From: Argentina anserina
Taxonomy: Eukaryota > Streptophyta > Magnoliopsida > Rosales > Rosaceae
Assembly: GCF_933775445.1 (NCBI RefSeq)
Contig: NC_065874.1
Location: forward strand, 18,247,001 to 18,311,000
Direction of reading: 5' to 3'
Length of the DNA stretch: 64,000 bases
Both the position numbers and the translations under genes were made by a program. The notes under the pieces are model-generated. The model made no database searches. It saw only the letters and a list, made by a program, of their open reading frames with translations, and had not been told where the DNA came from. Shown here piece by piece: positions 9,998 to 58,800 of the stretch; positions within the stretch are counted from its first letter, which is position 1, and each line of letters starts with the position of its first letter.

Positions 9998-10746
9998 GCA
10001 TAGTACCTGTTGTACGAAAGTTAAAGAGTTAGCATTGAAGAATACACAATGAACACATATAATTCGTGCCTTCCCTTAGTCACACACACGCACACTTATG
10101 GGGAAGGGCACGACAACTATGTCAAGTTTACAAGGAGTTAGTTCTTTATGTTTATAAAAGTTCATACAATTCACAAGTTCTTTTTTGCCATTTCAATGAT
10201 TGAACGATCGATTGATTCTAAGTTGTAAACCAAGGTGGACGTGCGGCCTAAGTATGGATGCCTAGACACAAGATCAAGTCTTTGTTTCAGAAGGCCTTGT
10301 AGCTCAATCAGAGATAGTGAACATGGTAGGACTCATTTGTTGAACTACGGAGAGCGAACTCCCTATCGACTCTATCACCGAGATGTATGTCAGTCATTAG
10401 TTCTCTGAGATCCAATTTTGGTCCCATGCACCAGAGTAATAAGAGAGCGTGCCCCTTACTCAGCTGGACTTAACCTCGTGTGTTAGACAAATCTCCAAGT
10501 GTTAATAAAAGCCGCCCTCGACCTCATGCAAACTCGAGAGCTAGCATGAAGGGTTAAGGCTAATATTAACAAAAGGGACTTTACCTATTCCGTTCGATTT
10601 ACAACCTACAACAATCATTCACTCAAGCACCAAAACAACAACCTAAGATACATTACTATATGTACAACGAAATAAGATAAGAATATACAAATGTACAATA
10701 TACACAATGAATTCGCATTAAAAGTTAGGGATCCATCTCTTATGGA
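9998..10746 (-). other. Leader between primer site and gag of element B
   Basis: Untranslated leader, minus strand. I see no ORF. I also do not see the AAYTACG stem-loop array that the leader of element C carries. Confidence 0.6.
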
Positions 10747-10764
10747 TCCCCGGCAACGGCGCCA
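10747..10764 (-). promoter_or_regulatory. Primer binding site, tRNA-Asp type
   Basis: The minus strand reads TGGCGCCGTTGCCGGGGA, complementary to the 3' end of plant tRNA-Asp. It lies two bases after the LTR end (TCATCA). The same site is present at 31502-31519 in element C. Confidence 0.9.
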
Positions 10765-10766
10765 TT

Positions 10767-11516
10767 TGATGATTGCTCGATTACTCGACATCAATATTTA
10801 ACCCTGAACACATCATTAGTAGTATAAAGCAAGAGGGTATCGTTCACAAACCGGGGATCCAGCCAGGACTTAGGATCACACACTTAACACGAATTCATAA
10901 AGATATAAAAAGTTGATATAGGTTTTCGGATTGAAATATAAAAACAGTAAGTAAAATCTAAACTAATATGTACATGTGATCAACCAACCAACACATAAAC
11001 AATCACCAAAACAACTCACATAAGAGAATCGAAACAAGCTTCATGACTTCCTTTAGAATCATGCCGAGACTATATATTGAATAACTAAGGATGGATCATG
11101 CAATTAGGGTTCTAAGCAGTAACCTAAACACATAGACACTTCACACATTCGATTAATACCAAGCAGCCATAATCGAAATCTAACATGTTCATCTTTATCA
11201 TGTAATTCCAAAGCCATGCACATTGAATTCATCAAGTATGTCACTTACTTAACCAACAACCATGCAATTCGAAAATCACATATACAAGAATAAACATGTT
11301 CTTAGCCTAAGTCTTTAATCCAACAACCTAAATATCATGCTACAAGCATAGTCATAACACATAGAAATCGAAATTGATCAAGAACAATACTCGGCAGAAA
11401 CCAAAACAGAAACTTCATAAAACCAAAATATAATTTTCGAATCCTTTATATAAATTGAATCAAGTAGCTATTTCGTAGACAAAATTGAAACAAGATTACA
11501 CTACACAAATCACAAG
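10767..11516 (-). repeat. 5' LTR of element B, truncated
   Basis: Reverse-complement match to 1350-2101. Homology ends at 11516, where unrelated sequence begins, so the U3 part of this LTR is missing. Confidence 0.75.
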
Positions 11517-12149
11517 CTGATCCAAATTGAGGTTTTGTGTTTGAGCACCTGGGCACTTTGGGGTTGAATCAGACTCCTCGACAAAATTGAGGTTCATAGA
11601 GCTTATTATTATTAGTGGGCAAAGGTGTTCGAATGCATGAAGTTGTGTTCATAGTTGACAATTATGGGCACACAAGCAATAGTAGATAACCAAAACATAA
11701 TTACTTAAACTAAATAAATGAGAGGCAGGTGGCTCAAACCCAGATTACCACCCATCCAAGACGTGGCATCACCACTATACCATCCTTAATAAGACATGTA
11801 CTTTATTGATCTTTATAATAGCACCCCGTATTCCTCCAACTCCATTGTTGGATTCTTCTTGCTTTGATTGATTTGATCACACTATATATCACGAAAAGAC
11901 TCTTATGACATGTACCCAGAAGTCCTCTGCTGCTCAGAGAGTTTTTGTTCATCAAATACCTTTTTTTTATGAAATCACGTCGACTTTCTAGTAACTCTTT
12001 GGTTTACTGTCGTCTTCTCTTGATCATCATTGGCCTTCGCTTATTGGGTTATCGATTCCATTATAAGACACAACTTGAAATACATAATTGAGCTACTAAT
12101 CGAGTAGATGTGGAGGTTGAATGTATAAACCTGATTTTATCTATTTACT
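11517..12149. other. Unassigned spacer
   Basis: AT-rich sequence between the truncated Athila LTR and the LINE. No ORF, RNA gene or recognised repeat was found. Confidence 0.5.
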
Positions 12150-29415: not shown

Positions 29416-29526
29416 GTTACGACTAGGCCCTCTGTTTCCTCCAGTTTGGTACGGTGCAGATTAATCCCTTGATTTCTCTTTTCGACTTTCTCTCTTACTT
29501 TCTGATTAGCTTATGGAACTCCTTTT

Positions 29527-31495
29527 TGTTAGGTTAATATTAACCTAGTAATGTTTGCCTTATTCTTATTATTTTGCTTTATATTTTTGTATATTTATTT
29601 ATTTCTTTTTACGTTTCCTACTCATGCTAGGAAAATGTGCAAATGATCGGAAACACGTCAAGAAGAGTGGATTTAGCGCACATTATGGATTCGGGTGAAA
29701 GTTTCAAGCTAAAAAGAGCAAATGTGGAGATTTCATAAGAAAAGAAAAGTCAACGCCGGAAAATGCCGGTTAAACTCCGGCGATGAGAAGGTGGTTGCCG
29801 GAAATGGTGGTGGTTAAAGTCAATAAGTCAATGAAGCATATTGGTGAATTATGAATTGTAAATTTTAATTTACAATTTAAATTCAAAATAGAAGAAGACA
29901 AATGAAGGAGACAATTTCAAGAACAAGATCCTCAATTTGTGCTCCATGAATTGGGGATTTAAATTTAAAATAGAAGAAGACAAATGAAGGGGACCATTTC
30001 AAGAACAAGATCCACAATTTGTGCTTCTACATTTGTCCACCATATCTAACCATTCATCCCCTTACATCTCCACCATTCATTTGTGACCTTAAGGCCTTTA
30101 AATACCCTCATTCTTCACAAATTCGTGCATTCTCCTTCACCACACTAAAACTCCATCAAAACTTCATATTTTCCATAGTTTTAACATAGTTTTCTTAGGC
30201 CTAAGTCATAGATATCAAGTTGTGCAAAGAAAAGTGTAAAGTGTCTTGAGTTTTCACCAAAAACTAAAGATCCTTTACACCCTTGATCAATCACAAACTT
30301 GTTTCATAGATTTGGGTCACTTCACTCTCTTTATCCTCTACTCATACTCTTTCTCAACCCTTGTTCTTTGTTCCTAGATTGTGTGGATAAAGTATGGTGT
30401 TCATGGAGTTCTTCTTTTGTTAGAACCCATTAATACCATACTTAGAAGCATTTTCTTTCTTATTACATCTTTGTGGGTAGTAAGCCTTTAGAGGTACGGT
30501 TTGGTATCATTTGTACCAAACCCTTGGTAATCTCTTCTCTCTTTACTCTACTTCTCTTTTGATGTATTTCATTTTCAAGGGTGTTGTATTTAATGGGTTG
30601 TGAGTAGTTGGATTTGAGGCTAGGCTAGCCCTAGCCAAACTCATGTGCTAATGAATTCATTTTACTTTTAATTGATGTTGATGCATGTTGAATCTATGGG
30701 CTTCTACACTTAAAATGCTTACTAAATGTGTTACTAGTTTTGTCACCTAGAAACATGTTTAGGTAATTAATGAATCGGAATTTGAACTTGACAACTTCTT
30801 GAATCCGTGAGCATGGGTAGCCTTTAGGTGGTGGCTTAGTGTTTCTTACGGGAAATACTAAGTTGCTTGAATTTCTTACCATGAACTTAATGCTTGTTCC
30901 ATGAGTGTAATTACTCTAAGGGGGTGTTATGCTTGTGGTACATAGCCCACTTGTATTATAAGGTAATATAATTGGGACTAAGGTTTTGTGATTTAATTTG
31001 GCTCCAAAAGACTTTGTTAAATTACATGATTAGTTGGTTTCTTGGTAGCTTCACCAAAGCACTAGGGGGAAGTTTGTCAAACATGTTATGCATTAATCTT
31101 GAGTTACATTTGTGCATGAGTAAGGCTAGGTGCAATGCCTAAGTCTCTACTCCTCTTTTGATTCTATCTCTACATTTACCTTTCTTTGTTGTTTTAGTGC
31201 AAGAATTAGTTTACTTAGCTTAATTCTAAAATCAACCAAGTCGATTCACTACCACTTGTTAATACCATCTCCATGATTCTTAGCTTCCAAAGGGCTAAGG
31301 TTGTGAACTTGTAAAAAGTTAGAATGCATGTTTTTCTAGTTTTTCTTGCGAAAATCTAGTTAGAGTTGAGTTTCCCCCAATCCCTTGGGTACGATACTCT
31401 ACACTTTCCCTTACTAAAACTTGACCTCCTATACTTGGGAGTAGGTAGTTTCACCCATAAATACACATAATCATACTTAAGTGATTCAACCAACA
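29527..31495 (+). repeat. 5' LTR of element C
   Basis: 1969 bases, TGTTAGG...CCAACA. It holds a TATA-like CTTTAAATAC near 30097-30106 and a direct duplication of about 90 bases (29880-30030) around AGAAGAAGACAAATGAAGG. A short palindrome, TTGTAAATTTTAATTTACAA, lies just before that. Confidence 0.95.
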
Positions 31496-31501
31496 AGTTT
31501 T

Positions 31502-31519
31502 TGGCGCCGTTGCCGGGGA
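31502..31519 (+). promoter_or_regulatory. Primer binding site, tRNA-Asp type
   Basis: TGGCGCCGTTGCCGGGGA, six bases after the LTR end. Confidence 0.92.
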
Positions 31520-32175
31520 TTGAGGTAAAACTTAATTCCTATTAGGTTTCTAAGGGACTAGAGAACCCATTTTTTTCTAGTTTACTTTTTTTTATGTTTG
31601 TAAATATCTACCTTACTTTTGAAGTTGACACAAGTACTTTTGATAAGTGGAATGGTAGTTGTGGTAAGAAGAAAATAAATTGCATGCATGTTTCAAATGG
31701 AAAAGTAATCTTGCCTAATTATTATTTACTTATTACTTGTGCAAGCTCACATTCTAGTTGGTTAAAATTTGTAAATTTAAATATAAGGTACTCACTTTCT
31801 TTAGAATTAGAGGTTGATTGGAACTTGTAAATTTCAAAGTAAATTGGATTAGGGGCTTTATCCTTGTACCGTCGAGTTTAATCACTCTTCATCGAAAAGT
31901 TGAGTGGTAAACAACACCCAAGGATGGAATTCCTCTTCTATTTTACTAAGTGAATCGGATTTGGATTTTTTTTTTTGTAACGTATTTGTTTATCGCTCTT
32001 CCAAATAGGCGCACCTTAGTAGGATTATGATGTCTAGGTAAGTGGATAGGGATTTTATCCCGGGCGTTGTGCCGTGTACTAAGTGGTCTCACCTACCAAA
32101 GCCGCGCCTACGCTTACCTGGTCATAATTCGAAAAGAGTTACCGAAAAGAAGAATGTTAAGCTAATTAGTGCATT

Positions 32176-32298
32176 GTTTGGAACTACGCCAAACTATTTT
32201 GGAACTACGCCAAAACGCACTTTGTTTGGAACTACGCCAAACTTGGATTGGAATTACGCCAATTTCGTTACACTTGAGTTGGAATTACGCCAACTTGG
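32176..32298 (+). other. Array of five stem-loops with constant heptaloop in the leader of element C
   Basis: Five inverted repeats close on GG-AAYTACG-CC: 32176-32194 (GTTTGG/CCAAAC), 32197-32215 (TTTTGG/CCAAAA), 32224-32242 (GTTTGG/CCAAAC), 32247-32263 (ATTGG/CCAAT) and 32278-32294 (GTTGG/CCAAC, extendable to 32274-32298 with A-U and G-U pairs). The loop is AACTACG three times, then AATTACG twice. The outer pair changes between copies but stays paired. Start spacings are 21, 27, 23 and 31, not all multiples of three, which argues against a protein-coding repeat. It lies between the primer site and gag, where retroelements carry packaging and dimer signals. Function is inferred only. Confidence 0.8.
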
Positions 32299-32514
32299 AA
32301 AATCCTTATCCTTTTTGTTTTTCTCACTACAAGTTTTGATTGGTTTCTAATTTTCTAGAAATTGTTTGCAAGTACCTTGGTAAATTCTTTAAAAAAAAAA
32401 AAACAAAAAAAAATCTAAATAATTATTGTTGCAATTTTAATTTCTTATATATATTTTGCATGTTGTTTTATTGCTATTTACTTACTTGATCTTTAATTTG
32501 TTCCTTAGGTGTTC

Positions 32515-35500
32515 ATGTCCTTATCTCCTAAGAGTGAAAAAGGTTTACAAACGATTCTAGAGCCCACCGATCAAGAGACTCCCATTGGGATTGGACAAAA
32601 GTTCAAGGCTTCTGCATCTACTAGTTTGTTTGGGGAAGATTCAAGTGATTCAAGTGAGAATGTGGAAAGTCCGGAACTAGTGGTTAATGACCTAGCCACC
32701 TTTGAGAGGTTGTTCAATCTTGACAAAGAGGCACGGAAATTGAATCCTAATCTTGGTCCAAGAATATACAAGATAGTCATGGCGGATGGTGAACCAAGGG
32801 ATGAGTTGAGAGAGCAAAGACCTATCCGAGATTGTGCCTTGCCTACAATTTCTACACACTCAAGATGCATAGTGCTTCCTCCATGTGCATCATCTTTTGA
32901 GATCAAGCCTAGTTTTCTTCAAACCTTGCCAACATTCTATGGGTTACCGAACAATGATCCTTATCACCACTTAAGTGAGTTTGAGGATGCATGCGCAAAT
33001 ATCAAACTCAATGGCATGACGGAAGAAGCGCTCAAGCTCCGGTTGTTTCCTTGCTCCTTGAAGGAAAAGGCGAAGATGTGGTTGAACAAGCTCCCATCCA
33101 ATAGTATTGGTTCATGGGAAGATATGCAAAAGAAGTTTATTATGAAGTACTTCCCTCCTCAAAAGGCTAATGCAAGAAGAACCGAGTTGATGACCTTTAA
33201 GGAGGAGCAAGATGAGCTCTTTCATGAGACGTGGGAGAGATTCAAAGATCTTGAGCTTGGTTGCCCTAATCATGGCCAATCTCAAGATATGCTTATGAGC
33301 CTATTTTATCAAGGCTTGACATCGGAGACTCGAAGGAAGGTTGATAATGCAAGCAATGGTGATTTCATGGACTTAGTGGCGGATGAAGCCCATCGCGTAT
33401 TAGAGAAGCTTGCGGAGCGGTCTCAATTGTGGGATAATAACCCGCAAGTTCGCAAGCCTTCTTCTTCACATTTATCTCTAAGGGAAGCAACTCAACCGAA
33501 AACCGGTGGCATATATGAAGTCAAGGCATCAAGCTTGGATGTGCATCAAGAGTTTAAGAGGTTAGAAGAAAGTCTTAATAAGAAGTTTGATATGCTTTTG
33601 AAGCAAGGAAAGCAAGGAGGCCGTGAGAAGGTTAATGAGGTTCAAGGGCCACAAGTGTGTTTAATTTGTGAAGGAGTGAATCATGACACTCTATCTTGCC
33701 CTCATGGAGATTGTTTTCCCGAGATCATTGAAGAATGTAAGCAAATGGCATATTCAAGACCGAAGAATGACCCTTATTCCAACACTTACAATCCCGGATG
33801 GAGAAACCACCCTAATTTCTCATGGGGTGGGAACCAAGGTATGAATTGCAACAATCAAGGGAGTGTCAACTATGGAGGTGCTAGTGGGAGCCAAAGCTTT
33901 CAAGGAAACAAAGGTGCGACTAATGGAGGTTATGGTGGCAATACTTATCCTAAGCCACCTTATCAAGCAAGACCTCCTTTTCAAGCTCCTAATACTCAAG
34001 TGCCACATCCTCCTCAAGTGGATGCTCCTAAATCAAGCCTTGAAGAGATGCTTGCCAAGGTTTTGGCAAATCAAAATGAGCTTATTCAAAGTGTTCGAAA
34101 TGATGTGGCCTCCACTACTCAAGGATTGCATAAGCTTGAAGCGCAAATGGGGCAATTGGCTAATGAGATGAGAGAAAGGAAGCAAGGAGAATTGCCTTCC
34201 ATGACCGAGAAGAATCCACGAATCAACCAAGCCAAGGCCATAAGAACTTTGAGAAGGGGGAAGGTATATGACAATAAGGTTGCTCCTAATGATGACGATA
34301 AGGAGGTGGATGCACCAACAGAACCTTTGTTGAATCCTAAAGTGTCAAGAGTGCCTCCCGGATTTCAAAAGAAGAACAAAGGCATGGAGGATACTTTGGG
34401 ACATGATGGAGTGATCTTGGGGTATAGTGAGGAGTATTTGAAGAGCCAAGGCAAGCCCAACACCAAGAATGACAATATGGGAGCAAGTGGATCTAAGTCT
34501 AGTGTGGAAGAAATGCAAGAAGAAGCGCCACTTCCCTTTCCACAAGCGGTATACCAAGAGAAGGCTTTAAGTAAGAAAGAGAAGAAGTCCATGGAGTGTT
34601 TTGATGTGTTCAAGAAGGTAGAGGTCAATATTCCTCTTCTTGATGCAATCAAGACCATTCCTACTTATGCTAAATTTCTCAAGGACTTGTGCACTCACAA
34701 GCGGTATAAGAGTACATTGAAGAATGATGACAAGGTGTGTTTGAATGAGAGAATTAGTGCCGTGCTTCAAAGGAGGTTACCGCCCAAGCTCAAAGATCCG
34801 GGTTCTTTTACTATTCCTTGCAAGATTGGTGAGAGACCATTTGAGAAGGCACTCATGGATTTGGGGGCTAGCATAAATTTGATGCCATATGGTGTCTACA
34901 AAGATCTTGGGTTGAGCGACATCAAGCCTATACAAATTTCTCTCCAACTAGCCGATAGAAGTGTGAGGTATCCAAGAGGAGTTGTGGAAGATGTGTTAGT
35001 GCAAGTTGACGAGTTGGTCATACCAGCCGATTTCGTTATTCTTGACATGGAGGATGTTTACCAAGATGATCTCCCTATTATCTTTGGTAGAGCTTTTATG
35101 GCCACAGCGGGGACAAAGATTGATGTGAAATTGGGTTTGCTCACCATGACCGTGTATGACACCACAATTGGGTTCAAGATCTTTGATGAATTAAAGAAGC
35201 CCATGAGGTTGCAAAAAGTTTACTCTATTGAAGTGGAAGACAAGATTGATGACTTGGTGGAGCACACTTTTCATGAGACTTCAACAAATGATGCATTTGA
35301 GTCGGCACTAGCACACTTTGGGTTGGATTTTTGTGAGGATGAAACTTTGGAAGCCGGGGATCACCTTGACACTTATCTTGCTTTGCCTTTGCCCACAAAA
35401 GAAGATGGTTACTATTCAAGAGATGAGACTTGTGAGGTGCATGCCACTATCAATTATCTCTCAATGAATGTTAATCCTTCGGTTTTGAGTTCGGCCCCTA

Positions 35501-38412
35501 TTGAATTGAAGCCTCTTCCCGTACATTTGAAGTATGTTTATATTGATGATTCCCGCACCTTGCCCCTCATTATCTCTTCAAGCTTGTCACATGAACAAGA
35601 GACTTTACTTCTTGATGTTCTTCGGAGGCATAAGGGTGCTTTTGGATGGAAGATTAGTGACATAAAGGGGTTGAGTCCCACTCTTTGCATGCACCATATT
35701 TACATGGAGGATGAAGCAAAACCAAGAAGGGAAGCTCAAAGAAGATTGAACCCCAACATGTTAGAGGTGGTGAAGAATGAGATTATTAAGCTCTTTGATA
35801 ATGGAATCATCTATTCTATCTCCGATTCCAAATGGGTGTCTCCAATACAAGTGGTGCCTAAGAAAGGAGGAATGACGGTAGTGAAGAATGACAAGGGTGA
35901 GATGGTTCCACAAAGAATTGCAAACACATGGAGGGTTTGTGTCGACTACCGCAAGTTGAATGCTGCAACAAGGAAGGATCACTTTCCACTCCCTTTCATT
36001 GATCAAATGTTGGAAAGGCTTGCGGGACAAGCATTCTATTGTTTCCTTGATGGCTATAGTGGATATAATCAAGTCCCAATTGCCCCCGAAGATCAAGAGA
36101 AGACAACTTTCACATGCCCATATGGAACTTTTGCTTACCGAAGAATGCCTTTCGGATTATGTAATGCACCCGCCACCTTCCAACGGTGTGTCATGGCCAT
36201 TCTTGCCGAGTTGCTTGAGTTTGTAGAAGTCTTCATGGATGACTTTTCTGTGTATGGGAACTCATTTGAAAAATGTCTTGATCATCTCTCCCTTGTCCTT
36301 AAGAGGTGTGAAGAGACGAATCTAGTGCTTAATTGGGAGAAATGTCAGCTCATGGTGCAAGAAGGGATTGTTCTTGGCCACAAAATATCATCGAAGGGGA
36401 TTGAAGTAGATAAAGCAAAGGTTGAAATCATTGAGAAGTTGCCCCCTCCCGTGAATGTAAAAGGTGTAAGAAGCTTTCTTGGGCATGCCGGTTTTTACCG
36501 AAGGTTTATAAAAGATTTCTCCAAGATAGTGAAGCCTCTTTGTGATCTATTGGCCAAGGAGACTCAATTTATATTTGATGAAGCATGTTTGAAGGCATTT
36601 GAGAGGATAAAGGAGTTACTTACCAATGCTCCTATTATTTGCTCACCGGATTGGACTCTCCCATTTGAAATTATGTGTGATGCAAGTGATTATGCCTTGG
36701 GAGCAGTGTTGGGACAACGCAAGGAGAAACTCTTACATGCCATCTACTATGCAAGCAAGACCTTGAATGATGCCCAAGTAAACTATACTACCACCGAGAA
36801 AGAGTTATTGGCGGTGGTATTTGCCTTAGAAAAGTTCCGAAGCTATCTCTTGGGGTCTAAAGTCATTATCCACACGGATCATTCCGCACTCAAGTATTTA
36901 TTGTCTAAGAGTGATACCAAGCCAAGACTTTTGAGGTGGATTTTACTTCTTCAAGAGTTTGACATTGAAATTGTCGACAAGCCCGGCAAGGTTAACTTGG
37001 TAGCGGATCATCTCTCTCGACTTACTCATCAAAGTGAAGATAATGGGGTGCCTTTGGATGAATCATTTCCGGATGAGAGGTTGTTTTCCATTGTTGAGAA
37101 GAAGCTACCATGGTTTGCACATTTGGTTAACTTCTTGGCAAGTGGGGGGAAATGCTTTCCTAAGACATTTGATTTCCATTCAAGAAGGAGACTCATTAAA
37201 GAAGCAAGACACTACTTTTGGGATGATCCATACTTATTCAAGCAATGCAAGGATCAATTGGTGAGAAGATGCATTCCGGAGGAAGAAATACAAAGTGTCT
37301 TATCTTTTTGCCACGATCAAGCTTGTGGCGGTCACCATGGAGGAAAGAAAACGGCCCAAAAAGTACTTAATTCTGGGTTTTGGTGGCCGTCATTATTTAA
37401 AGATGCACATTCTTATGTGAGCTCTTGTGATCGTTGTCAAAGGGTAGGCAATATTTCCTCAAGAGACCAAATGCCTTTGAACTATATGCTTGAAGTGGAG
37501 ATATTTGATGTATGGGGCATAGACTTTATGGGACCCTTCCCAAGTTCATATGGCTATCTCTATATCCTTGTGGGAGTTGATTATGTAAGCAAATGGGTTG
37601 AGGCCGTGGCCACCAAGGTAAATGACCACAAGGTCGTGCTCAAGTTCCTTAAAGAGCACATCTTCACAAGATTTGGCACACCTAGAGCAATAATTAGTGA
37701 TGGAGGCTCCCATTTTATGAACAAGTCATTTGCGGCCTTATTGAAGAAGTATGGGGTTAAGCACAAAGTCTCGACACCATACCACCCCCAAACAAATGGC
37801 CAAGTTGAAATATCTAACCGGGAGATAAAGAGCATCCTTGAAAAGGTGGTGTCTACAACTAGAAAAGATTGGGCAATGAAGCTTGATGATGCTCTATGGG
37901 CTTACCGTACCGCATTCAAAACACCTATCGGAATGTCTCCATATCGCCTTGTTTATGGAAAGGCTTGTCATTTACCGGTTGAGTTGGAGCATAAGGCTTA
38001 TTGGGCATTGAAGACCCTCAATTTTGACATAGAAAAGTGTGGTGAGGAGCGGAAGTTAGAGCTTTGTGAGCTAGAGGAGCTTCGGATGGATGCCTATGAG
38101 AATGCAAAGATTTATAAAGAGAAAACTAAGGCATTCCATGACCAAAGGATCAAAACCAAGCACTTGGAGGTTGGGAAACTTGTACTTCTTTTCAACTCCA
38201 AATTAAAGTTGTTTCCCGGCAAGCTAAGATCAAGGTGGATTGGGCCATTTAAGCTTGTTGAAGTATTTAGTCATGGGGCGGTCACATTGAAGAACTTAAG
38301 AGATGGATCTACCTTTAAGGTTAATGGTCATCGAGTAAAGCCTTACCTAGAGGGTGCACCAAAAGATACTTATGCGGAGGTGAAGTACTTCGAGGACCCT
38401 CTCACCATTTGA
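32515..38412 (+). CDS. Athila gag-pol polyprotein, intact (element C)
   Basis: One uninterrupted frame of 1965 aa from the ATG at 32515; the frame opens two codons earlier at a GTG. From here, approximate residues: Gag capsid 140-300 ([20 protein letters not shown]); CCHC knuckle near 381 ([16 protein letters not shown]2CX4HX4C); protease near 782 ([12 protein letters not shown]); reverse transcriptase about 1060-1300, with [20 protein letters not shown] and catalytic [10 protein letters not shown] near 1240; RNase H near 1385-1510 ([15 protein letters not shown]); integrase about 1580-1880, with an HX3H-type start, CDRCQ, and the D,D,E residues in DYVSKW, SDGGSHF and [10 protein letters not shown]. 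The tail carries [13 protein letters not shown]. All catalytic residues are intact, so the protein looks functional. Confidence 0.95.
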
Positions 38413-40401
38413 GCAAGCATTATGGACCTTGTTAATGTCCTTAAACTTAAACCCGTCTTGGCGGACTCCAAGGGTTAGCATAATAAGATAGAGCTAAGGG
38501 ATTGCAAGGACCAACGAGCTTTGTGGGTTTTCACCATCCACAATTGGCACTATGGAGCTATATGAGATCTTCAAAGAGTTTGCATTTTCTTATCCTTCAC
38601 TCTCATTTTTCTAAGCATGATTAGTTGTGTTTGTGTTTCGATGTTAATAAATTATGGCAATGAGAGTTTGGATAGTCATTTCATACTTGACCAATGAATG
38701 AAACACAAAAGATTTAGCTTTTATTGAAATGATTATCCAAAGTTTAAGTGTGAGGTGCTTGTTAGGCAATTGTGTTGGTTAGTTTGTATTGACTAGCATG
38801 TGGTAAATAATATACATAGTTTATACCTTATATTTATTTCACCATTGTTCACGGCACATTGAGGACAATGTGTAAATTAAGTGTGAGGTGTAAGGCTAAG
38901 TAATTTCATTCCTTATAATTTTTTTTTATTTTTACTTTATTAAAAAAATCCATAAAAATTGAGATATTTTGAAAAATGAAAAAAACAAGTTTGTTTGTGG
39001 TTTACTTGCTTGGTGCCAATAACAAAACAATCATCATATTTGGATAGATTGATTTTGAGCATGTTTAGCGGTTAAAAATCAATGCTTTGTTAATAGGAGG
39101 ATTTGGCATTTTGTGCTCACATATGTTTAGAGTCATATTGCCTATGTCATTTCAAATGCATTCATGTGTGAAAGATGAGGACTATTTTTGTTGAAACGAT
39201 CTTTGCCTATGTGAGATTTTGAGCCGATGAGAGTGCATAAAAGTTCCTAATGCACTAGTTGTTTCATTGTGCGATCAATTCATTGTGCTTGCAATCTAGA
39301 ACTTGCTTTAAATCTTTCGAGACTTTTATCAAGGCATGAGTTGTTATTGGGGAAGACCAAGGCATTAGGTATCCACCAAGGCCAAATAGCTTTTATCCTT
39401 TAAAAAATTTCCATTAGTAAGCCAATTTGAGCCTATGTAGTTTTGTGTTAGCCTTTTCATTTCTTTACCACCATAAATGTCTACCATTCTTAAACTTAAA
39501 CATTTTTTTTTCTATCCTCTCTAAGCCAAGTGGTAAGCAATGTGAGTCCTATTGTTAGTTTGGTGCTTGTAAATGAGTTTGAGATATTTCAAAAGAATAA
39601 GTGTGAGGTGGGGTAGATTAGTCTTGTGTGTGGCTAAGAAAAAAAGAAAAATGGTGACTCTAGACATGTTCACAATATCAACAGAATCAATCAAAATCAA
39701 ATATGGGCTAGGGTCACCAAAAATTAGTGCTAGTAAAAAAAAAAAAAATTTGTTGCAAAAAAAAAAAATTCCAAAAAAAAAAAAGTGAGGAGAATAATTT
39801 AGTAGTCTAGTTGTACTTGAGTTTGTGGAATCAAGAACTTACAAAGCACATAGAGTTGTGAAAGTGTATTATAGGATCTCAACAAGAGAATTGCTTACTA
39901 TGAGGCTTAGAATTTGTGATATATTTCATTTTATTTCTTAAGCTTCTACCTTAAGCCCTATACAACCAAAATAAAAGACCTTGTGATCCGAGAGAACTCA
40001 TGTAATGATCATGTGGAGAAAAGATTGAAGAACAAGCCTATGGAAAGCGTGTCCATTGAATTGCTTTTGAGTGTAAACACTAACCAAAAACACTTGAGTG
40101 AAAATGAGTGTATCCATGTGAGTTTGATGGTTAGACAAATGTAGTCCAAGTTAATCATATATGGATGACTTTAAGATGACACACATGACATACGCATATA
40201 TATACTTTCTTGAGCATGACATTCCAAATCCATTTATTAGCCTTGCATTTCAAAAATTTAGTTTCTAATCATGCTCAATTGATATCATGGTTCTTTAAAG
40301 GAATTGGTTGAATTCAAGATGGAAGCAAGTGACCCATTTAGTTTGGTTGTGTTTAGTTTTGATTTGCTTGAGGACAAACAAAGTCTAAGTGTGAGGTAGT
40401 T
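38413..40401 (+). other. 3' noncoding region and polypurine motif of element C
   Basis: About 2 kb with no credible gene, and no env-like ORF. AAGTGTGAGG occurs four times: 38746-38755, 38879-38888, 39599-39608 and 40387-40396; the last lies five bases before the 3' LTR. Stem-loops precede them: 38667-38683 with 38725-38741 (17 bp, one G-U), 38855-38872 (perfect 7 bp, loop AGGA) and a weak 5-6 bp stem near 39577-39592. Only a feeble TTG/CAA stem with loop AGGA precedes the last copy. A-rich tracts lie at about 39737-39784. Confidence 0.75.
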
Positions 40402-42370
40402 TGTTAGGTTAATATTAACCTAGTAATGTTTGCCTTATTCTTATTCTTTTGCTTTATATTTTTGTATATTTATTTATTTCTTTTTACGTTTCCTACTCAT
40501 GCTAGGAAAATGTGCAAATGATCGGAAACACGTCAAGAAGAGTGGATTTAGCGCACATTATGGATTCGGGTGAAAGTTTCAAGCTAAAAAGAGCAAATGT
40601 GGAGATTTCATAAGAAAAGAAAAGTCAACGCCGGAAAATGCCGGTTAAACTCCGGCGATGAGAAGGTGGTTGCCGGAAATGGTGGTGGTTAAAGTCAATA
40701 AGTCAATGAAGCATATTGGTGAATTATGAATTGTAAATTTTAATTTACAATTTAAATTCAAAATAGAAGAAGACAAATGAAGGAGACAATTTCAAGAACA
40801 AGATCCTCAATTTGTGCTCCATGAATTGGGGATTTAAATTTAAAATAGAAGAAGACAAATGAAGGGGACCATTTCAAGAACAAGATCCACAATTTGTGCT
40901 TCTACATTTGTCCACCATATCTAACCATTCATCCCCTTACATCTCCACCATTCATTTGTGACCTTAAGGCCTTTAAATACCCTCATTCTTCACAAATTCG
41001 TGCATTCTCCTTCACCACACTAAAACTCCATCAAAACTTCATATTTTCCATAGTTTTAACATAGTTTTCTTAGGCCTAAGTCATAGATATCAAGTTGTGC
41101 AAAGAAAAGTGTAAAGTGTCTTGAGTTTTCACCAAAAACTAAAGATCCTTTACACCCTTGATCAATCACAAACTTGTTTCATAGATTTGGGTCACTTCAC
41201 TCTCTTTATCCTCTACTCATACTCTTTCTCAACCCTTGTTCTTTGTTCCTAGATTGTGTGGATAAAGTATGGTGTTCATGGAGTTCTTCTTTTGTTAGAA
41301 CCCATTAATACCATACTTAGAAGCATTTTCTTTCTTATTACATCTTTGTGGGTAGTAAGCCTTTAGAGGTACGGTTTGGTATCATTTGTACCAAACCCTT
41401 GGTAATCTCTTCTCTCTTTACTCTACTTCTCTTTTGATGTATTTCATTTTCAAGGGTGTTGTATTTAATGGGTTGTGAGTAGTTGGATTTGAGGCTAGGC
41501 TAGCCCTAGCCAAACTCATGTGCTAATGAATTCATTTTACTTTTAATTGATGTTGATGCATGTTGAATCTATGGGCTTCTACACTTAAAATGCTTACTAA
41601 ATGTGTTACTAGTTTTGTCACCTAGAAACATGTTTAGGTAATTAATGAATCGGAATTTGAACTTGACAACTTCTTGAATCCGTGAGCATGGGTAGCCTTT
41701 AGGTGGTGGCTTAGTGTTTCTTACGGGAAATACTAAGTTGCTTGAATTTCTTACCATGAACTTAATGCTTGTTCCATGAGTGTAATTACTCTAAGGGGGT
41801 GTTATGCTTGTGGTACATAGCCCACTTGTATTATAAGGTAATATAATTGGGACTAAGGTTTTGTGATTTAATTTGGCTCCAAAAGACTTTGTTAAATTAC
41901 ATGATTAGTTGGTTTCTTGGTAGCTTCACCAAAGCACTAGGGGGAAGTTTGTCAAACATGTTATGCATTAATCTTGAGTTACATTTGTGCATGAGTAAGG
42001 CTAGGTGCAATGCCTAAGTCTCTACTCCTCTTTTGATTCTATCTCTACATTTACCTTTCTTTGTTGTTTTAGTGCAAGAATTAGTTTACTTAGCTTAATT
42101 CTAAAATCAACCAAGTCGATTCACTACCACTTGTTAATACCATCTCCATGATTCTTAGCTTCCAAAGGGCTAAGGTTGTGAACTTGTAAAAAGTTAGAAT
42201 GCATGTTTTTCTAGTTTTTCTTGCGAAAATCTAGTTAGAGTTGAGTTTCCCCCAATCCCTTGGGTACGATACTCTACACTTTCCCTTACTAAAACTTGAC
42301 CTCCTATACTTGGGAGTAGGTAGTTTCACCCATAAATACACATAATCATACTTAAGTGATTCAACCAACA
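40402..42370 (+). repeat. 3' LTR of element C
   Basis: 1969 bases, matching 29527-31495 with one difference noticed. It is followed directly by the CTTTT target duplication. Confidence 0.95.
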
Positions 42371-42835
42371 CTTTTGTCCCTAATTAGGACAAGATACACC
42401 AAAAATGCATAGGAGATGATTCTCCTCCAACATATATTTGATTTATATCTCATCCTATATTAAAAGAACGGGGAAGAATGTTTACATACGGTAGAAGAAC
42501 AATAAGAAAATAATGGATGGTAAATGATGAAAAGAAAATGAATAATTAAGAATTGTTCAAACTAATATAAAAAGATTTCACTTGACATCAAGGTACGAGA
42601 GAGTAAGACAGGTTGATGAAATAATGGTGGCACGCATTGCAATCGGAAGAAGAAGAAAGACATATACGATGTCTAGAAAGTTGCAAAATATTTATTATTT
42701 ACTTTTAAATGAAAGTTTATATGTATATTACATCCATTAATTAAGGTATACATATATCTTCATTATATATATTAAAGCTCATTTAGATTTGGTGCCCCCC
42801 CTTAAATGTGGTGCCCTGTGCCAAAACCGGGCATG
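42371..42835. other. Remainder of the interrupted LTR/hAT-like sequence
   Basis: Continues the sequence cut by element C and ends with GGTGCC-rich hAT-like terminal sequence. No gene seen. Confidence 0.5.
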
Positions 42836-45898: not shown

Positions 45899-46832
45899 TA
45901 AATTACTTTTACTAAAGGTAAAAAGTAATTTTGGAAGAGTAATACGGTAATGATTATTTACTGAGACAGTACGTACTTTTGAATAGTATTTATGCGTACA
46001 GAAATACATAAATAGTATGTACTCGTACAACGATACGTATTGAATATGTATTTGTACATTAATACGTGAATAGTAACTGTGAATAGTAACAGTTAACAGT
46101 AACCGTGAATAGTAACAGTTAACAGTAACACTGAATACTAACGGTGAACAGTAAATTCGTAAAACCGAAAATTGCTGAACAGTAACCGATTATTACTGTT
46201 TCGGCATTTAAAGGTTTACGAAATGTTTCTAAATTCTTTTCTTATCTTTTCAAGGTGATCGACAAATCAAGGAAAGGAATTATCTCCGGAACTTGTGGAA
46301 TTACGCTCGAGTCGATAAGGTGAGTAAAATCTCACTTATTTACGAATCTACCCTTGCGGTGATTCCAAGATTTTTGCAAGAGTTTTTAATATTGAATTAC
46401 GACACGTATACAATATAGTAGATTACGTATATATCGTATAAATGGTAATAAGTACATATATATATAGTTTGCTATATGATATATTGTTACTAATTCATTG
46501 GAATTGGTCATTCCGAATGACGAGAATTAAATGTTGAGCATGTGATTTGATTTTTTGTACAATATGAGGTGTGATTATTGTACGTGGTTTTAACATGAGT
46601 TTGTTAAAATGTTTTGTCTTCGGACGAGTTTTGTCTTCGGACGAGTTTTTGTCTTCAGACGTGTTTATGAAATATGACATGTATACGATATAATGTATTA
46701 TATATATATTGTATAAATGGTAAATATGTACATATATATATAGTTTGCTATATAATATACTGTTATGATTTTATCGTGATTTATGTCATTTCGATGACGA
46801 GATTTAAATATCGAGCATGTGATTTTGATTTG

Positions 46833-47027
46833 TATAATATGATGTGAGATTATTGTACGTGATTTTAACATTGAGATTGTTAAAATGTTGATTTGTCTTC
46901 GGACATGATTTTTGGTACAATATGATGTGAGATTATTGTACGTGATTTTACCATTGAGATTGTTAAAATGTTGATTTGTCTTCGGACGTGATTTGGTACA
47001 ATATGATGTGAGATTATTGTACGTGTT
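46833..47027 (+). repeat. 81-83-base tandem repeat
   Basis: Unit runs from TACAATATGATGTGAGATTA through TTGTCTTCGGAC. About two and a half copies lie here and the same array recurs in solo LTR 2 at about 52667-52860. Confidence 0.9.
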
Positions 47028-47799
47028 TGGCAAGTCGGAACCTAGCCTTTGGCCGGGCGAAAGTTACGATACAGTTAGAGCTCTAGTCTGTCTGCCTTAG
47101 TACTGCATGTGAGGTAACGGGTGGTTATCTGCTCATGGGTACTCAGATTGTTTTGGATGTTGGGTAGCGGGTGGCTATCCAATATCGGCGGTGTATTACG
47201 AGAGGGGTAACAGATGTGTACCAGCGTTCTTGGTACCCGTATTATAAATGCATTTGGGTAACCAGAAGGGTTACTTAATTTCTCATGAGCGCTTTTTTTC
47301 ATATTTCTTTGGGACAACCAGATGGGCCGTCCATTGACTCATGAGTGCATTTATATTTGTTTGATTTGTGGATTTTCGTATATATATTAATATGCGAGTT
47401 ATATTTTCATTTTACTCATACGAGCTGTAAAGCTTACCGGGTTTGTGTTTACAATCCCGGTGCACCAATTCGATGGTGTAGTGGATAACTCCGCAGGTGT
47501 GGATTAGCGGGAATTGACGGACCGCTCAGAGGACTTGAAGTTATTTATCTCCAGCTTGTGTGAGGATTTTGTGTGACTATCTTGTGAGTTTGTTGTGAGG
47601 ATTGTAATAATTGGTTATAATATTGAATATTGAATTATAATTTGGGTTGTAATAATTGGTTTTTCTGAGTTGTATTGAGAACTCAGTAATGATCCGCTGT
47701 GCATTTTAAATGATTTCGATTTCATTGAAATTGTTTATTGTTTAACGACTTTGGAATTTTGAGTTTTTAAGCTTGAAATTTTAGGGTCGTTACATGGAC

Positions 47800-50968: not shown

Positions 50969-53625
50969 TGTAATAACCCGAATTTTTAGAAACTAAATGT
51001 CGAGTATTTTTAAAGTGTTAAACTTGTGAAATTAATTCAAGACGACAATTGGAGGTTTGCGACATTTCGAAACGAAAACGGAAACATTCTCGGATCGTTT
51101 AATTAGAAAACGTAACGTTACCGCAATGTATAGATCGACTTTTATTCCGTCACTCGGTTGCGAAAACTTCCTTCACGAAAGTCGTAGAGCTCATCAATAC
51201 GAATTCGTGCACACGTCATGCGTTCGAATCGAACGCAAAAGTTATTAACGTCGGAAGTTCGTTTCCGATTTCGGAAATAGTATAAAAGGAAGGAGATGAG
51301 ATTAAAAATCAGATTTTTTCTAAAAATCAGCTCGGGTACTGTTCACCCGAGCTTAGGTACTGTTCACCGACCCAAAAACCTTCTCCAGCCGATTTCTCCA
51401 CCATCCGACATCGCCTCGTGTCGTGCCACCTATCAAAGTGACGGGGTCGACGATCTCCATCTTTTGGGCTACGCCTTGCACTCCGGCGACAACCACACAC
51501 CGTGTAGCAACCGCCGGAAGTTACTGCTGTGTCGGCATCGCCTCCTCCGGCCACCATAGCTCGAGACTCTTGGGGGGTTTTGCTTGTCTCAGTCCCAGCA
51601 ACATTCCCACAAAAAGAATCGAGCCAAATCGAAGTGTAAGTACCCGAATCAAAATTTCAATTTCTAGGGTTTGTGAATAGTGCCGAATTTATGTTCTTCG
51701 TTGTTTGGACTGTTTAGGCTCGGATTTAGATCTTGGTGTCAACTAGAAAGTTGTTGGAAATGTTTTTTAGGTTGTGGTGGTGAAATTTGGTGATGATTGG
51801 TGGCGGTCTGTGAACAGTAAAACCGCATGAACAGTGGTTGTAAATAGTAACGCCGTGTGAATAGTAACAGTAGATGTGAACATTGTCATGGTAAAAACAG
51901 TACATGTGAACAGTGTTGTGGCAAAAACTGTTGCTGTGAACAGTGCCGTGGTAAAACAATAACTGTGAACAGTGGCATGGTAAAAACAGTGATTAGTAAA
52001 CATGAACAGTGTTCCCGTGAACAATGTTTTATGAACAATATTTAGCAGTGCTGAACTCGCCATCTAATATTTTAAGTATCATTTTCTAAGTATTTATCGT
52101 GCTATTAGGTGACTGACGAAATGAGTGAGGAAATTACTTTCAGGGTCGTGGAAGTTGCACGTAGGAAAGAAGGTTGAGTAAAATCTCACATATTTACGAA
52201 TCTACCCTTGCGGAGATTCAAGATTTTATAAGAGTTTTTAATATTGAATTACGACATGTATACGATATAGTGGATTACATATATATTGTATAAATAGTAA
52301 TAAGTACATATATATATAGTTTGCTATATTATATAATGTTATGAATTCATTAGAATTGGTCATTTCGATGACGAGAATTAAATATTGAGCATGTGATTTG
52401 ATTTTTGTACAATAAGATGTGTGATTATCGTACGTGGTTTTAACATGAGTTTGTTAAAATGTTTTGTCTTCGGACGAGTTTTTGTCTTCGGACGTGTTTT
52501 ATGAAATATGACATGTATATGATATAATGGATTATATATATATTGTATAAATGGTAAATATGTACATATATATATAGTTTGCTATATAATATACTGTTAT
52601 GATTTTATCGTGATTTATGTCATTTTGATGACGAGATTTATATATCGAGCATGTGATTTTGATTTGTACAATATGATGTGAGATTATTGTACGTGATTTT
52701 AACATGGAGATTGTTAAAATGTTGATTTGTCTTCGGACTTGATTTTTGGTACAATATGATGTGAGATTATTGTACGTGATTTTAACATTGAGATTGTTAA
52801 AATGTTGATTTGTCTTCGGACTTGATTTGGTACAATATGATGTGAGATTATTGTACGTGTTTGGCAAGTCGGAACCTAGCCTTTGGCCGGGCGAAAGTTA
52901 CGATACAGTTAGAGCTCTAGTTTGTCTGCCAGAGTCCTGCATGTGAGGTAACGGGTGGTTATCTGCTCATAAGTACTCATATTTTTGGATATTGGGTAGC
53001 GGGTAGTTGCCCAATATCGGCGGTGTATTACGAGAGGGGTAACAGATGTGTACCAGCGTTCTTGGTACCCGTATTATAAATGCATTTGGGTAACCAAAAG
53101 GGTTACTTAATTTCTCATGAGCGCTTCTTTTCATATTTCTTTGGGACAACCAGATGGGCCGTCCATTGACTCATGTGTGCATTTATATTTGTTTGATTTG
53201 TGGATTTTCGTATATATATTAATATGCGAGTTATATTTTCATTTTACTCATACGAGCTGTAAAGCTTACCGGGTTTGTGTTTACAATCCCGGTGCACCAA
53301 TTCGATGGTGTAGTGGATAACTCCGCAGGTGTGGATTTGCGGGAATTGACAGACCGCTCAGAGGACTTGAAGTTATTTATCTCTAACTTGTGTGAGGATT
53401 TTGTGTGATTATCTTGTGAGGTTGTTGTGAGGATTATACATTTCTATTTTGTTATAATGTTGAATTATAATTTGGTTTGTAATAATCGGTTTGACTGAGT
53501 TGTATTTTGAACTCAGAGATGATCCGCTGTGGCATTTTAAATGATTTCGATTTCATCGAGATTGTTTGGTGTGTAACAACTTTGAAATTTTGAGTTTTTA
53601 AGCTTGAAATTTTGGGGTCGTTACA
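50969..53625 (+). repeat. Solo LTR 2, 2657 bases
   Basis: Same family as solo LTR 1: TGTAATAACCC start and GGGGTCGTTACA end, with perfect flanking TTAAT (50964-50968 and 53626-53630). TATA-like GTATAAAAGG near 51283. It has its own run of GTGAACAGTG words (51785-52030) and shares the 81-83-base array, but lacks the GC-rich block and the 26-base repeats, which explains most of the 538-base length difference. Confidence 0.82.
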
Positions 53626-53630
53626 TTAAT

Positions 53631-55840: not shown

Positions 55841-58800
55841 TAGGGGTGGACACGGGTCCATTCGGTTCGGTTTTGGACAAAACCCATAACCCAACCCAAA
55901 TTTTAAATTCGGTTCGGTTCGGTTCGGTTTTTCTATTTTAGAGACTGTGACCCATAACCCAACCCAACCCGTACGGTTCGGTTCGGTTCGGTTTTTTTTT
56001 TCGGTTTTACCCGTAAGTAAAATACGTAATATTATATATTAATTTTAAAAGTACAAAATTTAACATAAAGATGAAAAACTAATGGTCTAATGATTATTCC
56101 ATACCTAATTGACTTATCCCTCATCATTTAGCCCGTGGATCCGAAAATCTCGCCGAGTCCCGCAAGCCCGATGGGCTTTTATCCGAAAACAACACTAATA
56201 TGTTATAAGGGAAGACCCATTACCAAAATGCGAACACTAAAAGCCGTTTGCATATATGAAATCACCTAATTTTTGTCACCGATTGTGTGTTGTCGCACCA
56301 AAAAAACCCATTTGGGAAAGTCCCGGTCAATGAGGATTTTAATATGTCAAAACGCCTTTTTTTTTGTTGACCAAAGGTACGGACTGTCATCAATATCCAA
56401 AACAGACGAAATTTTTACGGGTTCCCTAAATATATATACTAATCACATCTATTGGTGTCAATCGACCATATTTCGAACTGTAGTTATCGACCGCCGAAGT
56501 GCCCACTAATGTATCATACATTTATATTAGATTTATAATAAAACTATCGCATTATGAAGCGACTATATGATTGAAACTTCTCGGAATCAATCGATATTAT
56601 CTGATATCATCGGTATATATATTTAGTGACCCTATAAAAATTTCATCCAATTCAGAGCTCATTTAACCGTTGAAATTTTCGGTAAATCGAAAACACCACT
56701 ATTATGCCCTAAGGGAGGACCTATTACAAAGATGCGAACACCGAAATCCGTTTGGATATCTGAAGCCACCTAATTTTTGTTACCTATCATGCGTGGTCGC
56801 ACTGAAAAAATCTATTTGGAAAAACCCCGATCAATGAGGTTTTATTATGTGAAAACGCATCTTTTTTGGTTGACCGTATGTACGAACGGTCAAACAATGT
56901 CCAAAACGAACGAAATTTTTACGGGGTCCCTAAATATATATACCAATCACATCTGATGGTGTCGATCGACCATATTTCGAATTAGAGTTGACGATCACTT
57001 AAGTGTCAACTAATGTATCATAACTTTTATATTATGTTTAAAATAAAACTATCGCATTATGAAGCGACTGAATGAAGAAGAGTTCTAGGGATCGATCGAC
57101 ACCAGCCGATGTCATCGGTATATATATTTAGTGACCCTATAAAAATTTCATCCAATTCAGATCTCATTTAACCGTCGGAATTTTCGGTAAATTGAAAACA
57201 CCACTATTATGCCCTAAAGGGAGGATCCATTACAAAGATGCGAACGCCGAAAGCCGTTTGCATATTTGAAGTCAACTAAATTTTGTTACATATCGTGCGT
57301 GGTCGCACTGAAGAAATCTATTTGGAAAAACCCCGGTCAATGATGTTTTATTAAGTGAAAACGCCTCTTTTTTGGTTGACCGTAGGTACGAACGGACAAA
57401 CCATGTCCAAAACGGAAGAAATTTTTACGGGGTCCCTAAATATATATACCGATCACATCTGCTGGTGTCGATCGATCATATTTCGAATTAGAGTTGACGA
57501 TCACCTAAGTGTCAACTAATGTATCATAACCTTTATATTAGGTTTAAAATAAAACTATCGCATTATGAAGCGACTATATGAAGAAAACTTCTAGGGATCG
57601 ATCGACACCAGCCGATGTGATCGGTATATATATTTAGAGACCCTATACAAATTTCATCCAATTCAGACCTCATTTGACCGTCGGAATTTTCGGCAAATTG
57701 AAAACACCACTATTATGCCCTAAGGGAGGATCCATTACAAAGATGCGAACGCCGAAAGACGTTTGCATATTTGAAGTCAACTAATTTTTGTTACCTATCG
57801 TGTGCGGTCGCACTAACGAAATCTATTTGGTAAAACCCCGGTCAATGAGGTTTTATTATGTGAAAATGCCTCTTTTTTGGTTGACCGTAGGTACGAACGG
57901 TCAAACCATGTCCAAAATGGACGAAATTTTTACGGGGTCCCTAAATATATATACCAATCACATCTGCTGGTGTCGATCGACCATATTTCGAATTAGAGTT
58001 GACGATCACCTAAGTGTCAACTAATGTATCATAACCTTTATATTAGGTTTAAAATAAAACTATCGCATTATGAAGCGACTATACGAAGGAAACTTCTAGG
58101 GATTGATCGACACCAGCCGATGTGATCGGTATATATATTTAGTAACCCTATAAAAATTTCATCCAATTCGGACCTCATTTAACCGTCGGAATTTTCGGTA
58201 CATCGAAAACACCACTATTATGCTATAAGGGAGGATCCATTACAAATATGCGAACGCCGAAAGCCGTTTGCATATCTGAAATCACCTAATTTTTGTTACC
58301 TATCATGCGCGGTCGTACTAAAGAAATCTATTTGGCAAAGCCCCGGTCAATGAGGTTTCAATATGTCAAAACACCTATTTTTTAGTTAACCGTAGGTACG
58401 ACCGGTCAAACCATGTCCAAAACGGACGAAATTTTTACGGGGTCCCTAAATATATATACCGATCACATCTGCTGGTGTCGATCGACTATATTTCAAATTA
58501 GAGTTGGCGATTACCTAAGTGTCAACTAATGTATCATAACCTTTATATTAGGTTTAAAATAAAACTATCGCATTATGAAGGAAGCAAGACGGCTAAATAA
58601 GGCGCCTCTTATACAGTTGGTCAATTAGGTTAGAAATTAGGTGCGGCTGTGAGGCCGACTACATTATTTTTTTAATTAAAAATAATAATAATAATAATGT
58701 AAAATTATAAATATGACAAAATGATGTCGTTTTGTAACGTTTACCATTGACTTCGGGTTGTTCGGGTCGGTTCGGTTTCTAAGGGACTGAACTCAAAACC

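What the first reader, a model, noticed from the sequence alone, without database searches (positions are those of the whole stretch)
32176..32298. Array of five covarying stem-loops with a constant AAYTACG heptaloop in the Athila leader
Between the primer binding site and gag of an intact element, the same small hairpin occurs five times. The GG/CC pairs closing the loop and the loop itself hardly change, while the outermost stem pair goes G-C, U-A, G-C, A-U, G-C: changes on one arm are matched on the other. The spacings do not keep a reading frame, so selection looks RNA-based. Position suggests a packaging, dimer or Gag-binding signal. The loop is not self-complementary, so loop-loop kissing of identical copies is unlikely; a protein or trans-RNA ligand is more plausible. 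I do not know of a description of this motif.
Basis: partly seen in the sequence, partly recalled or inferred. Interest (0 to 1): 0.78.

Follow-up and report, generated by a model that had tools for sequence, protein, structure and literature searches.

The report
Five-hairpin array in retrotransposon leader
A young plant retrotransposon carries five copies of one small RNA hairpin with the same seven-base loop just ahead of its first gene, most likely a docking signal on its RNA, although what binds it is not shown.

Summary
Confirmed: five same-strand hairpins GG-AAYUACG-CC (32176-32296) lie between primer site and gag of a young, intact Ty3-type element (LTRs differ at 1 of 1969 positions). 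Each 5' arm fits its own 3' arm (24 outer pairs; 2 of 120 arm re-dealings reach this). In its own 237-Mb genome TTGGAAYTACGCCAA occurs 104 times; the 100 listed all lie in the 31 places of this family. Qualifications: covariation lies between the five units, hardly between copies of one unit (one multi-state position, unit 2, where most copies are unpaired); units 1 and 2 prefer another fold; 11 of 31 copies have fewer units; two sister-type leaders, one old relative and two copies of another family lack the array. Best reading: a repeated RNA docking signal, most likely for Gag (which has a CCHC knuckle), i.e. packaging-like; inferred, not shown. Rivals: another RNA partner or dimerisation, a DNA-site array as in Drosophila gypsy, a neutral repeat. 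By-product: a 9-10 bp hairpin overlapping the primer site, kept with different arms in three families. No other plant genome could be searched.

The parts
29527..31495 (+). 5' LTR, TGTTAGG...CCAACA; flanked upstream by target duplication CTTTT (29522-29526)
   Evidence: 1969 bp, differs from the 3' LTR at one position; matching CTTTT at 42371-42375
31502..31519 (+). primer-binding site TGGCGCCGTTGCCGGGGA, 6 bases after the LTR
   Evidence: tRNA-Asp type by recall and by the description of Diaspora/Calypso in PMC1142308 (passages)
31515..31540 (+). 10-bp hairpin overlapping the last 5 bases of the primer-binding site (side finding)
   Evidence: same place, different arms, in L102, L103, L111, L106, L061 and the second element of the window
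32022..32130 (+). long hairpin; its 5' arm holds a splice-donor-like AG|GTAAGT (32036-32043)
   Evidence: fold z -1.75, 9 of 200 shuffles as good; AGGTAAGT kept in 28 of 30 other copies; use as a splice site not shown
32168..32221 (+). predicted stem AGUGC (32168-32172) / GCACU (32217-32221) enclosing units 1 and 2
   Evidence: minimum free energy folds
32176..32194 (+). unit 1: GUUUGG-AACUACG-CCAAAC
32197..32215 (+). unit 2: UUUUGG-AACUACG-CCAAAA
   Evidence: outermost pair is an unpaired C.A in 15 of 25 copies
32224..32242 (+). unit 3: GUUUGG-AACUACG-CCAAAC
32245..32265 (+). unit 4: GGAUUGG-AAUUACG-CCAAUUU (two G.U pairs)
32276..32296 (+). unit 5: GAGUUGG-AAUUACG-CCAACUU (one G.U pair; extendable by further G.U)
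32498..32514 (+). splice-acceptor-like TTGTTCCTTAG|GTGTTC directly before gag ATG
   Evidence: similar TAG|GTGTTTATG in L102 and L103; use not shown
32515..38412 (+). single gag-pol ORF, 1965 aa, with CX2CX4HX4C zinc knuckle at residue 382
40402..42370 (+). 3' LTR

Best explanation
The array is a cis-acting RNA element of the full-length transcript: five copies (three or four in some relatives) of one hairpin present the heptaloop AAYUACG on a short stem as a repeated docking site, most likely for the element's own Gag through its zinc knuckle, so that Gag gathers on genomic RNA and starts packaging into particles. Shown: the array, matched arms, restriction to one family in this genome, position between primer site and gag, a Gag with a zinc-knuckle motif. 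Inferred: RNA rather than DNA, selection for repeat number, Gag as ligand, packaging as outcome. A further unproven inference is that a splice-donor-like site about 140 bases upstream makes the array a mark of unspliced RNA, as in retroviruses.
For: Arms fit their own partner (24 outer pairs, 2 of 120 re-dealings reach it). Pair 5 is U-A, U-A, U-A, A-U, G-C in units 1-5 and is a standard pair in every copy with letters: 24 of 24, 29 of 29 (one U.G), 28 of 28, 25 of 25 and 28 of 28. Same-loop hairpins 5 against at most 3 in 100 shuffles. The asymmetric loops all face one way. TTGGAAYTACGCCAA: 104 matches in the own genome, reversed-pattern control 0; the 100 listed fall in the 31 family places and touch all 31. 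Unit 2 pair 6: C-G in L060 (early-branching on a tree that I rooted on L061), C.A in most copies, U-A in the window clade, a path that ends in a restored pair. Unit loss is frequent (11 of 31 copies; the fusion of units 1 and 2 needs 5 changes on the tree), yet 20 of 31 copies keep five, among them all 7 with leader identity of 0.993 or more to the window. Gag holds CX2CX4HX4C. [quoted passage not shown]
Against: No binding, probing or transcript data. Array fold only mildly better than shuffles (z -2.14; 6 of 200 fold as well); units 1 and 2 prefer an alternative fold, and on 14 distinct full arrays the drawn form of these two gets probability 0.0. Within the family, loops are only slightly less variable (0.020 substitutions per site) than upstream leader (0.029), and GG (0.047) and CC (0.047) are more variable. 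Decay hits pair-breaking G>A about as often as pair-keeping C>T (8 and 11 cells, counted by me). The clade L053, L054, L056 has four units, one of them with only one outer pair. Two sister-type leaders lack the array. A viral contig, L065, has four repeat units of the same 11-mer with four outer pairs each, so matched stems as such can come from multiplying one palindromic unit; only the differences between units argue for selection. No copies outside this genome were available, so there is no independent covariation test.
Confidence: 0.42

Rival explanations
1. RNA-level element with another partner: a host RNA-binding protein, genome dimerisation (loop-loop contact through the ACG/CpG, or the alternative fold in which units 1 and 2 pair with each other and leave two AACUACG strands facing), or a contact with the primer tRNA.
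For: Same evidence for RNA selection as above. Units 1+2 are predicted as one long interrupted hairpin. Ty3 dimerises through a short palindrome at the top of a hairpin in its 5' end (PMC11381356, passages); GACG loops act in retroviral packaging and heterodimers (PMC516450, passages).
Against: Loop not self-complementary beyond CG. No complement CGTARTT on the + strand of the element. The tRNA idea rests on recall only and was not tested.
Confidence: 0.25
2. DNA-level array: near-palindromic sites TTGG-N7-CCAA bound by a dimeric host DNA-binding protein, acting as enhancer or insulator in the transcribed leader.
For: The Drosophila gypsy 5' UTR holds 12 su(Hw) sites in about 350 bp; copia and ZAM have repeats there, ZAM's with enhancer function (PMC7168160, passages). 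A constant core of TTGG/CCAA fits a dimer site.
Against: Pairs 5 and 6 vary in letters between units but keep complementarity; units 4 and 5 use G.U, which is no DNA symmetry. The asymmetric loop is kept and all units face one way. The 15-mer was listed only inside the family (100 of 104 matches shown), unlike a usual host factor site.
Confidence: 0.15
3. A neutral tandem repeat: a hairpin-shaped unit multiplied by slippage and template switching that hitch-hikes with the element.
For: 11 of 31 copies have fewer units, nearly always by fusion inside two units (one loss in L059 has its junction in the linkers), as repeat-driven exchange would give. Sister-type leaders do without it. Substitution rates in the array are near those of the flanks. 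L065 shows that repeats can carry matched stems by descent.
Against: Arms of units 4 and 5 have diverged from unit 1 yet stay complementary; linkers are unlike each other while loops are constant; five units persist in the copies nearest the window although loss is frequent.
Confidence: 0.16

Closest known systems
Athila-lineage plant elements (OTA/Athila), above all Diaspora of soybean
   Same: Single gag-pol ORF, no envelope ORF of size, zinc knuckle, primer site described as complementary to tRNA-Asp a few bases after the LTR, unusually long leader (873 bp in Diaspora, about 1 kb here), splice acceptors predicted around the start codon (PMC1142308, passages).
   Different: The passages on Diaspora mention no leader repeats; a term search of its text for 'hairpin' gave 0. 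Its sequence could not be read here, so absence there is not shown.
Retroviral packaging signals (HIV-1 SL2/SL3, GACG stem-loops of alpha- and gammaretroviruses)
   Same: Small hairpins with exposed loops between primer site and gag; here also a splice-donor-like site in a hairpin upstream. HIV details recalled; GACG role from PMC516450 (passages).
   Different: Five near-identical heptaloop units instead of one or a few different hairpins; Gag binding unknown.
Ty3 of yeast
   Same: Same superfamily; sequences for tRNA annealing, dimerisation and packaging lie in the structured 5' end (PMC11381356, passages).
   Different: No repeated hairpin array is mentioned in the passages seen.
Drosophila gypsy insulator and copia/ZAM leader repeats
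   Same: Array of repeated motifs in the leader of an LTR element (PMC7168160, passages).
   Different: DNA-binding sites; matched stem arms are not part of their description in the passages.

Membership tests
Athila lineage of Ty3/gypsy | Ty3-type domain order gag, protease, RT, RNase H, integrase | tested here: met
   gag 176-269, protease 767-846 (22.3 bits, below its cut-off 24.3), RT 1126-1291, RNase H 1379-1482, integrase 1665-1758
Athila lineage of Ty3/gypsy | no chromodomain | tested here: met
   none among the 7 Pfam families found at E up to 0.001
Athila lineage of Ty3/gypsy | primer site matching tRNA-Asp | tested here: inconclusive
   sequence seen; match to tRNA-Asp rests on recall and on PMC1142308; no tRNA was aligned
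Athila lineage of Ty3/gypsy | RT/RH/IN phylogeny inside Athila | not tested
   no reference sequences at hand
Athila lineage of Ty3/gypsy | Athila ORF-1 domain PF03078 (in 16% of Athila elements per PMC6317226, passages) | tested here: not met
   not found (at E up to 5 on the first 662 residues); held by a minority of Athila elements, so not a defining feature
Retroviral-type packaging signal | lies in the leader between primer site and gag | tested here: met
Retroviral-type packaging signal | lies behind a used splice donor | tested here: inconclusive
   AG|GTAAGT at 32036, kept in 28 of 30 other copies; no transcript data
Retroviral-type packaging signal | conserved stem-loops by covariation | tested here: inconclusive
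   between units yes; between copies only unit 2 pair 6, unpaired in 15 of 25
Retroviral-type packaging signal | binds Gag and is needed for packaging | not testable with these tools
   Gag has CX2CX4HX4C; no binding data
Leader insulator/enhancer array (gypsy type) | repeated motif in the leader | tested here: met
Leader insulator/enhancer array (gypsy type) | DNA bound by a host factor | not testable with these tools
   none

The most novel reading that the evidence does not exclude
The array is a multivalent packaging code of a plant retrotransposon: near-identical heptaloop hairpins, each a weak Gag site, count as a set, so that only unspliced genomic RNA with enough units nucleates a particle; it would be the first such signal that I know of in the Athila lineage.
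Probability: 0.3. Interest if true: 0.75.

Novelty: new variant of a known kind. Interest (0 to 1): 0.52.

Why it matters
How plant LTR retrotransposons pick their own RNA for packaging is, as far as I know, largely undefined; even for yeast Ty3 the signals are 'not precisely defined' (PMC11381356, passages). A short, countable, repeated hairpin in a young, recently multiplied family gives a directly testable candidate, with natural copies holding three, four and five units for comparison.

Tried and rejected
Viral contigs: the paired 11-mer is found in 10 stretches, all periodic repeats of 15, 27 or 33 bases that look like coding repeats (by eye). Nine have 0-2 outer pairs per unit; L065 has 4 in four of its five units, near-identical copies of one repeat; no sign of kinship to the leader was seen or tested further. 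RT/RNase H region of the element against viral contigs: no relative. Prokaryote genomes: 1 stretch, open in one frame as a protein repeat. Rfam: 3 matches up to E 5 in 31400-32700, all below gathering, none on the array. Coding origin: the only ATG ORF of 20 aa or more on the + strand between LTR and gag ends at 31830. Translation block: units of -3.5 to -7.5 kcal/mol are too weak by general knowledge. MicroRNA-like precursor: stems of 6-7 bp are too short by general knowledge. Splicing footprint: three array-less copies (L107, L108, L110) looked like possible spliced cDNAs, but their junctions (32059/32521 with TTATC microhomology, 32040/32831, 32128/LTR) are not at the donor and acceptor. 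TTGG-N7-CCAA pairs with any loop: 78 places, control 5; of about 50 places listed before the list was cut, those at five spots lie outside the family and look unrelated by eye. The P of 3.7e-8 assumes independent units and is not used. (alignment with gapped rows) did not recover most of the array; one search used the 14 distinct full arrays.

Paper searches behind 'I know of no description' (open PMC papers only; 9 of 10 searches used and answered). Papers seen as passages only: PMC2829016, PMC3735527, PMC5902531, PMC12392961, PMC11381356, PMC3276544, PMC1142308, PMC6317226, PMC7168160, PMC516450; all others only as search listings. Subscription papers on Athila and Calypso were not available.

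Full report
What is there. The window holds a Ty3-type LTR element, 29527-42370, with LTRs of 1969 bp that differ at one position, a CTTTT target duplication on both sides and a primer-binding site six bases behind the 5' LTR. One ORF of 1965 aa (32515-38412) carries gag, protease (weak), RT, RNase H and integrase domains and a CX2CX4HX4C motif at residue 382. With the rates 7e-9 or 1.3e-8 per site and year (recalled) the single LTR difference means about 36,000 or 20,000 years. The only other ATG ORF of 50 aa or more between pol and the 3' LTR has 71 aa, so there is no envelope gene of size. The lineage name Athila fits but was not tested on a tree.

The array. Five units GG-AAYTACG-CC start at 32180, 32201, 32228, 32250 and 32281, spaced 21, 27, 22 and 31. 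Pair 5 reads U-A, U-A, U-A, A-U, G-C and pair 6 G-C, U-A, G-C, G.U, A-U. Arm re-dealing gives 2 of 120 at or above the observed 24 outer pairs. Same-loop hairpins number 5 in this leader and never more than 3 in 100 shuffles. The energy signal is mild: z -2.14, 6 of 200 shuffles fold as well. Units 3 and 5 are firmly predicted, unit 4 less so; units 1 and 2 compete with an alternative in which the arms of the two units pair with each other inside an AGUGC/GCACU stem.

Relatives in the same genome. The 301 bases around the array match 31 places; all 31 were held as loci. Twenty keep five aligned units, eleven have fewer (L058 keeps five aligned units but only three recognisable motifs). Losses are mostly fusions inside two units that leave one whole unit; in L059 one of two losses has its junction in the linkers. 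The fusion of units 1 and 2 is seen in 7 copies and needs five changes on a tree made from leader columns outside the array (31 rows; 5 of 28 inner branches well supported). Fused units keep 2-4 outer pairs, the intact ones of the window 4-7. The clade L053, L054, L056 lost a unit and has a unit 4 with one outer pair, so fewer than five units are tolerated, unless these copies were made by duplication of DNA (L053 and L054 lie 27 kb apart).

Specificity. TTGGAAYTACGCCAA occurs 104 times in the own genome, 0 for the reversed pattern; the 100 listed matches fall in exactly the 31 family places and touch each of them; four are not listed. Pairs of the 11-mer occur 64 times, control 0. So the hairpin belongs to this family and no listed match lies outside it. 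L102, L103 and L111 are one short-leader type, L104 and L105 are old and damaged, L106 belongs to the large second family that also lies on the minus strand of the window; none has the motif with up to 2 mismatches. L111 covers only the start of its leader and L105 has its primer-site match at the end of the stretch, so these two say little.

Evolution of the stems. Because most copies are dead, their differences are mainly decay: substitutions per site against the window are 0.029 upstream, 0.034 downstream, 0.020 in loops, 0.047 in GG and in CC, 0.042 and 0.020 in the outer 5' and 3' arms, 0.037 in linkers (30 copies). The one informative position is unit 2 pair 6: C-G in L060, U.G in the fused unit of L061, C.A in 15 of 25 copies, U-A in 8, among them the window clade of five near-identical young copies. 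With the root on L061 this reads as loss and later repair of a pair, essentially one event, and proves nothing alone; most copies, young ones included, live with the unpaired C.A. Among the five units themselves the matched but different arms are the main evidence. A caution comes from a control: L065, a viral contig without known kinship, has four units of a repeat with the same 11-mer and four outer pairs each, so stems can be multiplied with a repeat; there the units are copies of one another, here the arms differ.

How it may work. A set of equal loops in one direction, specific to the element, between primer site and gag, in an element whose Gag carries a zinc-knuckle motif, is best explained as a repeated RNA docking site for Gag. 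The upstream hairpin 32022-32130 carries AG|GTAAGT, kept in 28 of 30 other copies, and AG|GT stands right before the gag ATG here and in L102 and L103; if used, the array would mark unspliced RNA. Spliced cDNA traces were sought in three array-less copies and not found. PMC1142308 reports predicted acceptors around the start codon of Diaspora, but its predicted donors lie in the LTR (passages).

Against. No RNA data exist here; no second species was available; sister-type elements do without the array; statistics within the family are weak. DNA-site arrays in leaders are known in Drosophila (PMC7168160, passages).

Side finding. Directly at the primer site a 9-10 bp hairpin, whose 5' arm begins with the last five bases of the primer site, was found in 8 of the 10 loci given to (window, L001, L061, L102, L103, L111, L106 and the second element); L104 and L060 gave no primer-site match within 3 mismatches and were not folded. 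Inner arm letters are of GAG/CUU, GGG/CUC, GGA/UCC and CCA/UGG type, energies -8.9 to -16.1 kcal/mol; in L001 and L111 one pair is broken. In the window leader 10 of 982 overlapping stretches of that size fold at -9 or better. Across families this is clearer covariation than the array itself shows.

Noticed in passing
31515-31540; also L061, L102, L103, L106, L111 and minus strand near 10730-10766: A 9-10 bp hairpin overlapping the 3' end of the primer-binding site is kept across three families with different arm letters, suggesting a structured primer site in the whole group.
   Followed up: partly
32022-32130 and 32498-32514: Splice-donor-like AG|GTAAGT inside a long hairpin and an acceptor-like AG|GT right before gag; possible leader intron.
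   Followed up: partly
L107, L108, L110: Three copies lost the array by deletions whose upstream ends lie inside or at the base of the long hairpin 32022-32130, as if reverse transcriptase jumped there.
   Followed up: partly
7190-9997 (minus), 10767-11525, and 1-2101: A second, different Ty3-type element with its own gag on the minus strand, and an inverted partial copy of it at the window start.
   Followed up: no
56184-58580: Tandem array with a period of about 505 bp, nearly five copies, self-matches 83-91%.
   Followed up: no
46317-47795 and 52170-53626: Direct repeat of about 1.5 kb, 93% alike, with a shorter internal repeat; perhaps LTRs of another element.
   Followed up: no
L102:2-120, L105:182-509: More than 1 kb upstream of the primer-site match these loci carry a 19-20 base tandem repeat around GATCACCCACTTC.
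   Followed up: no
L065: A viral contig carries a 27-base periodic repeat with the same 11-mer and matched stems in four units; looks like a coding repeat.
   Followed up: partly
whole genome G000: Seven large contigs of 24-37 Mb and 237 Mb in all resemble a diploid strawberry (Fragaria) assembly; from recall, not tested.
   Followed up: no
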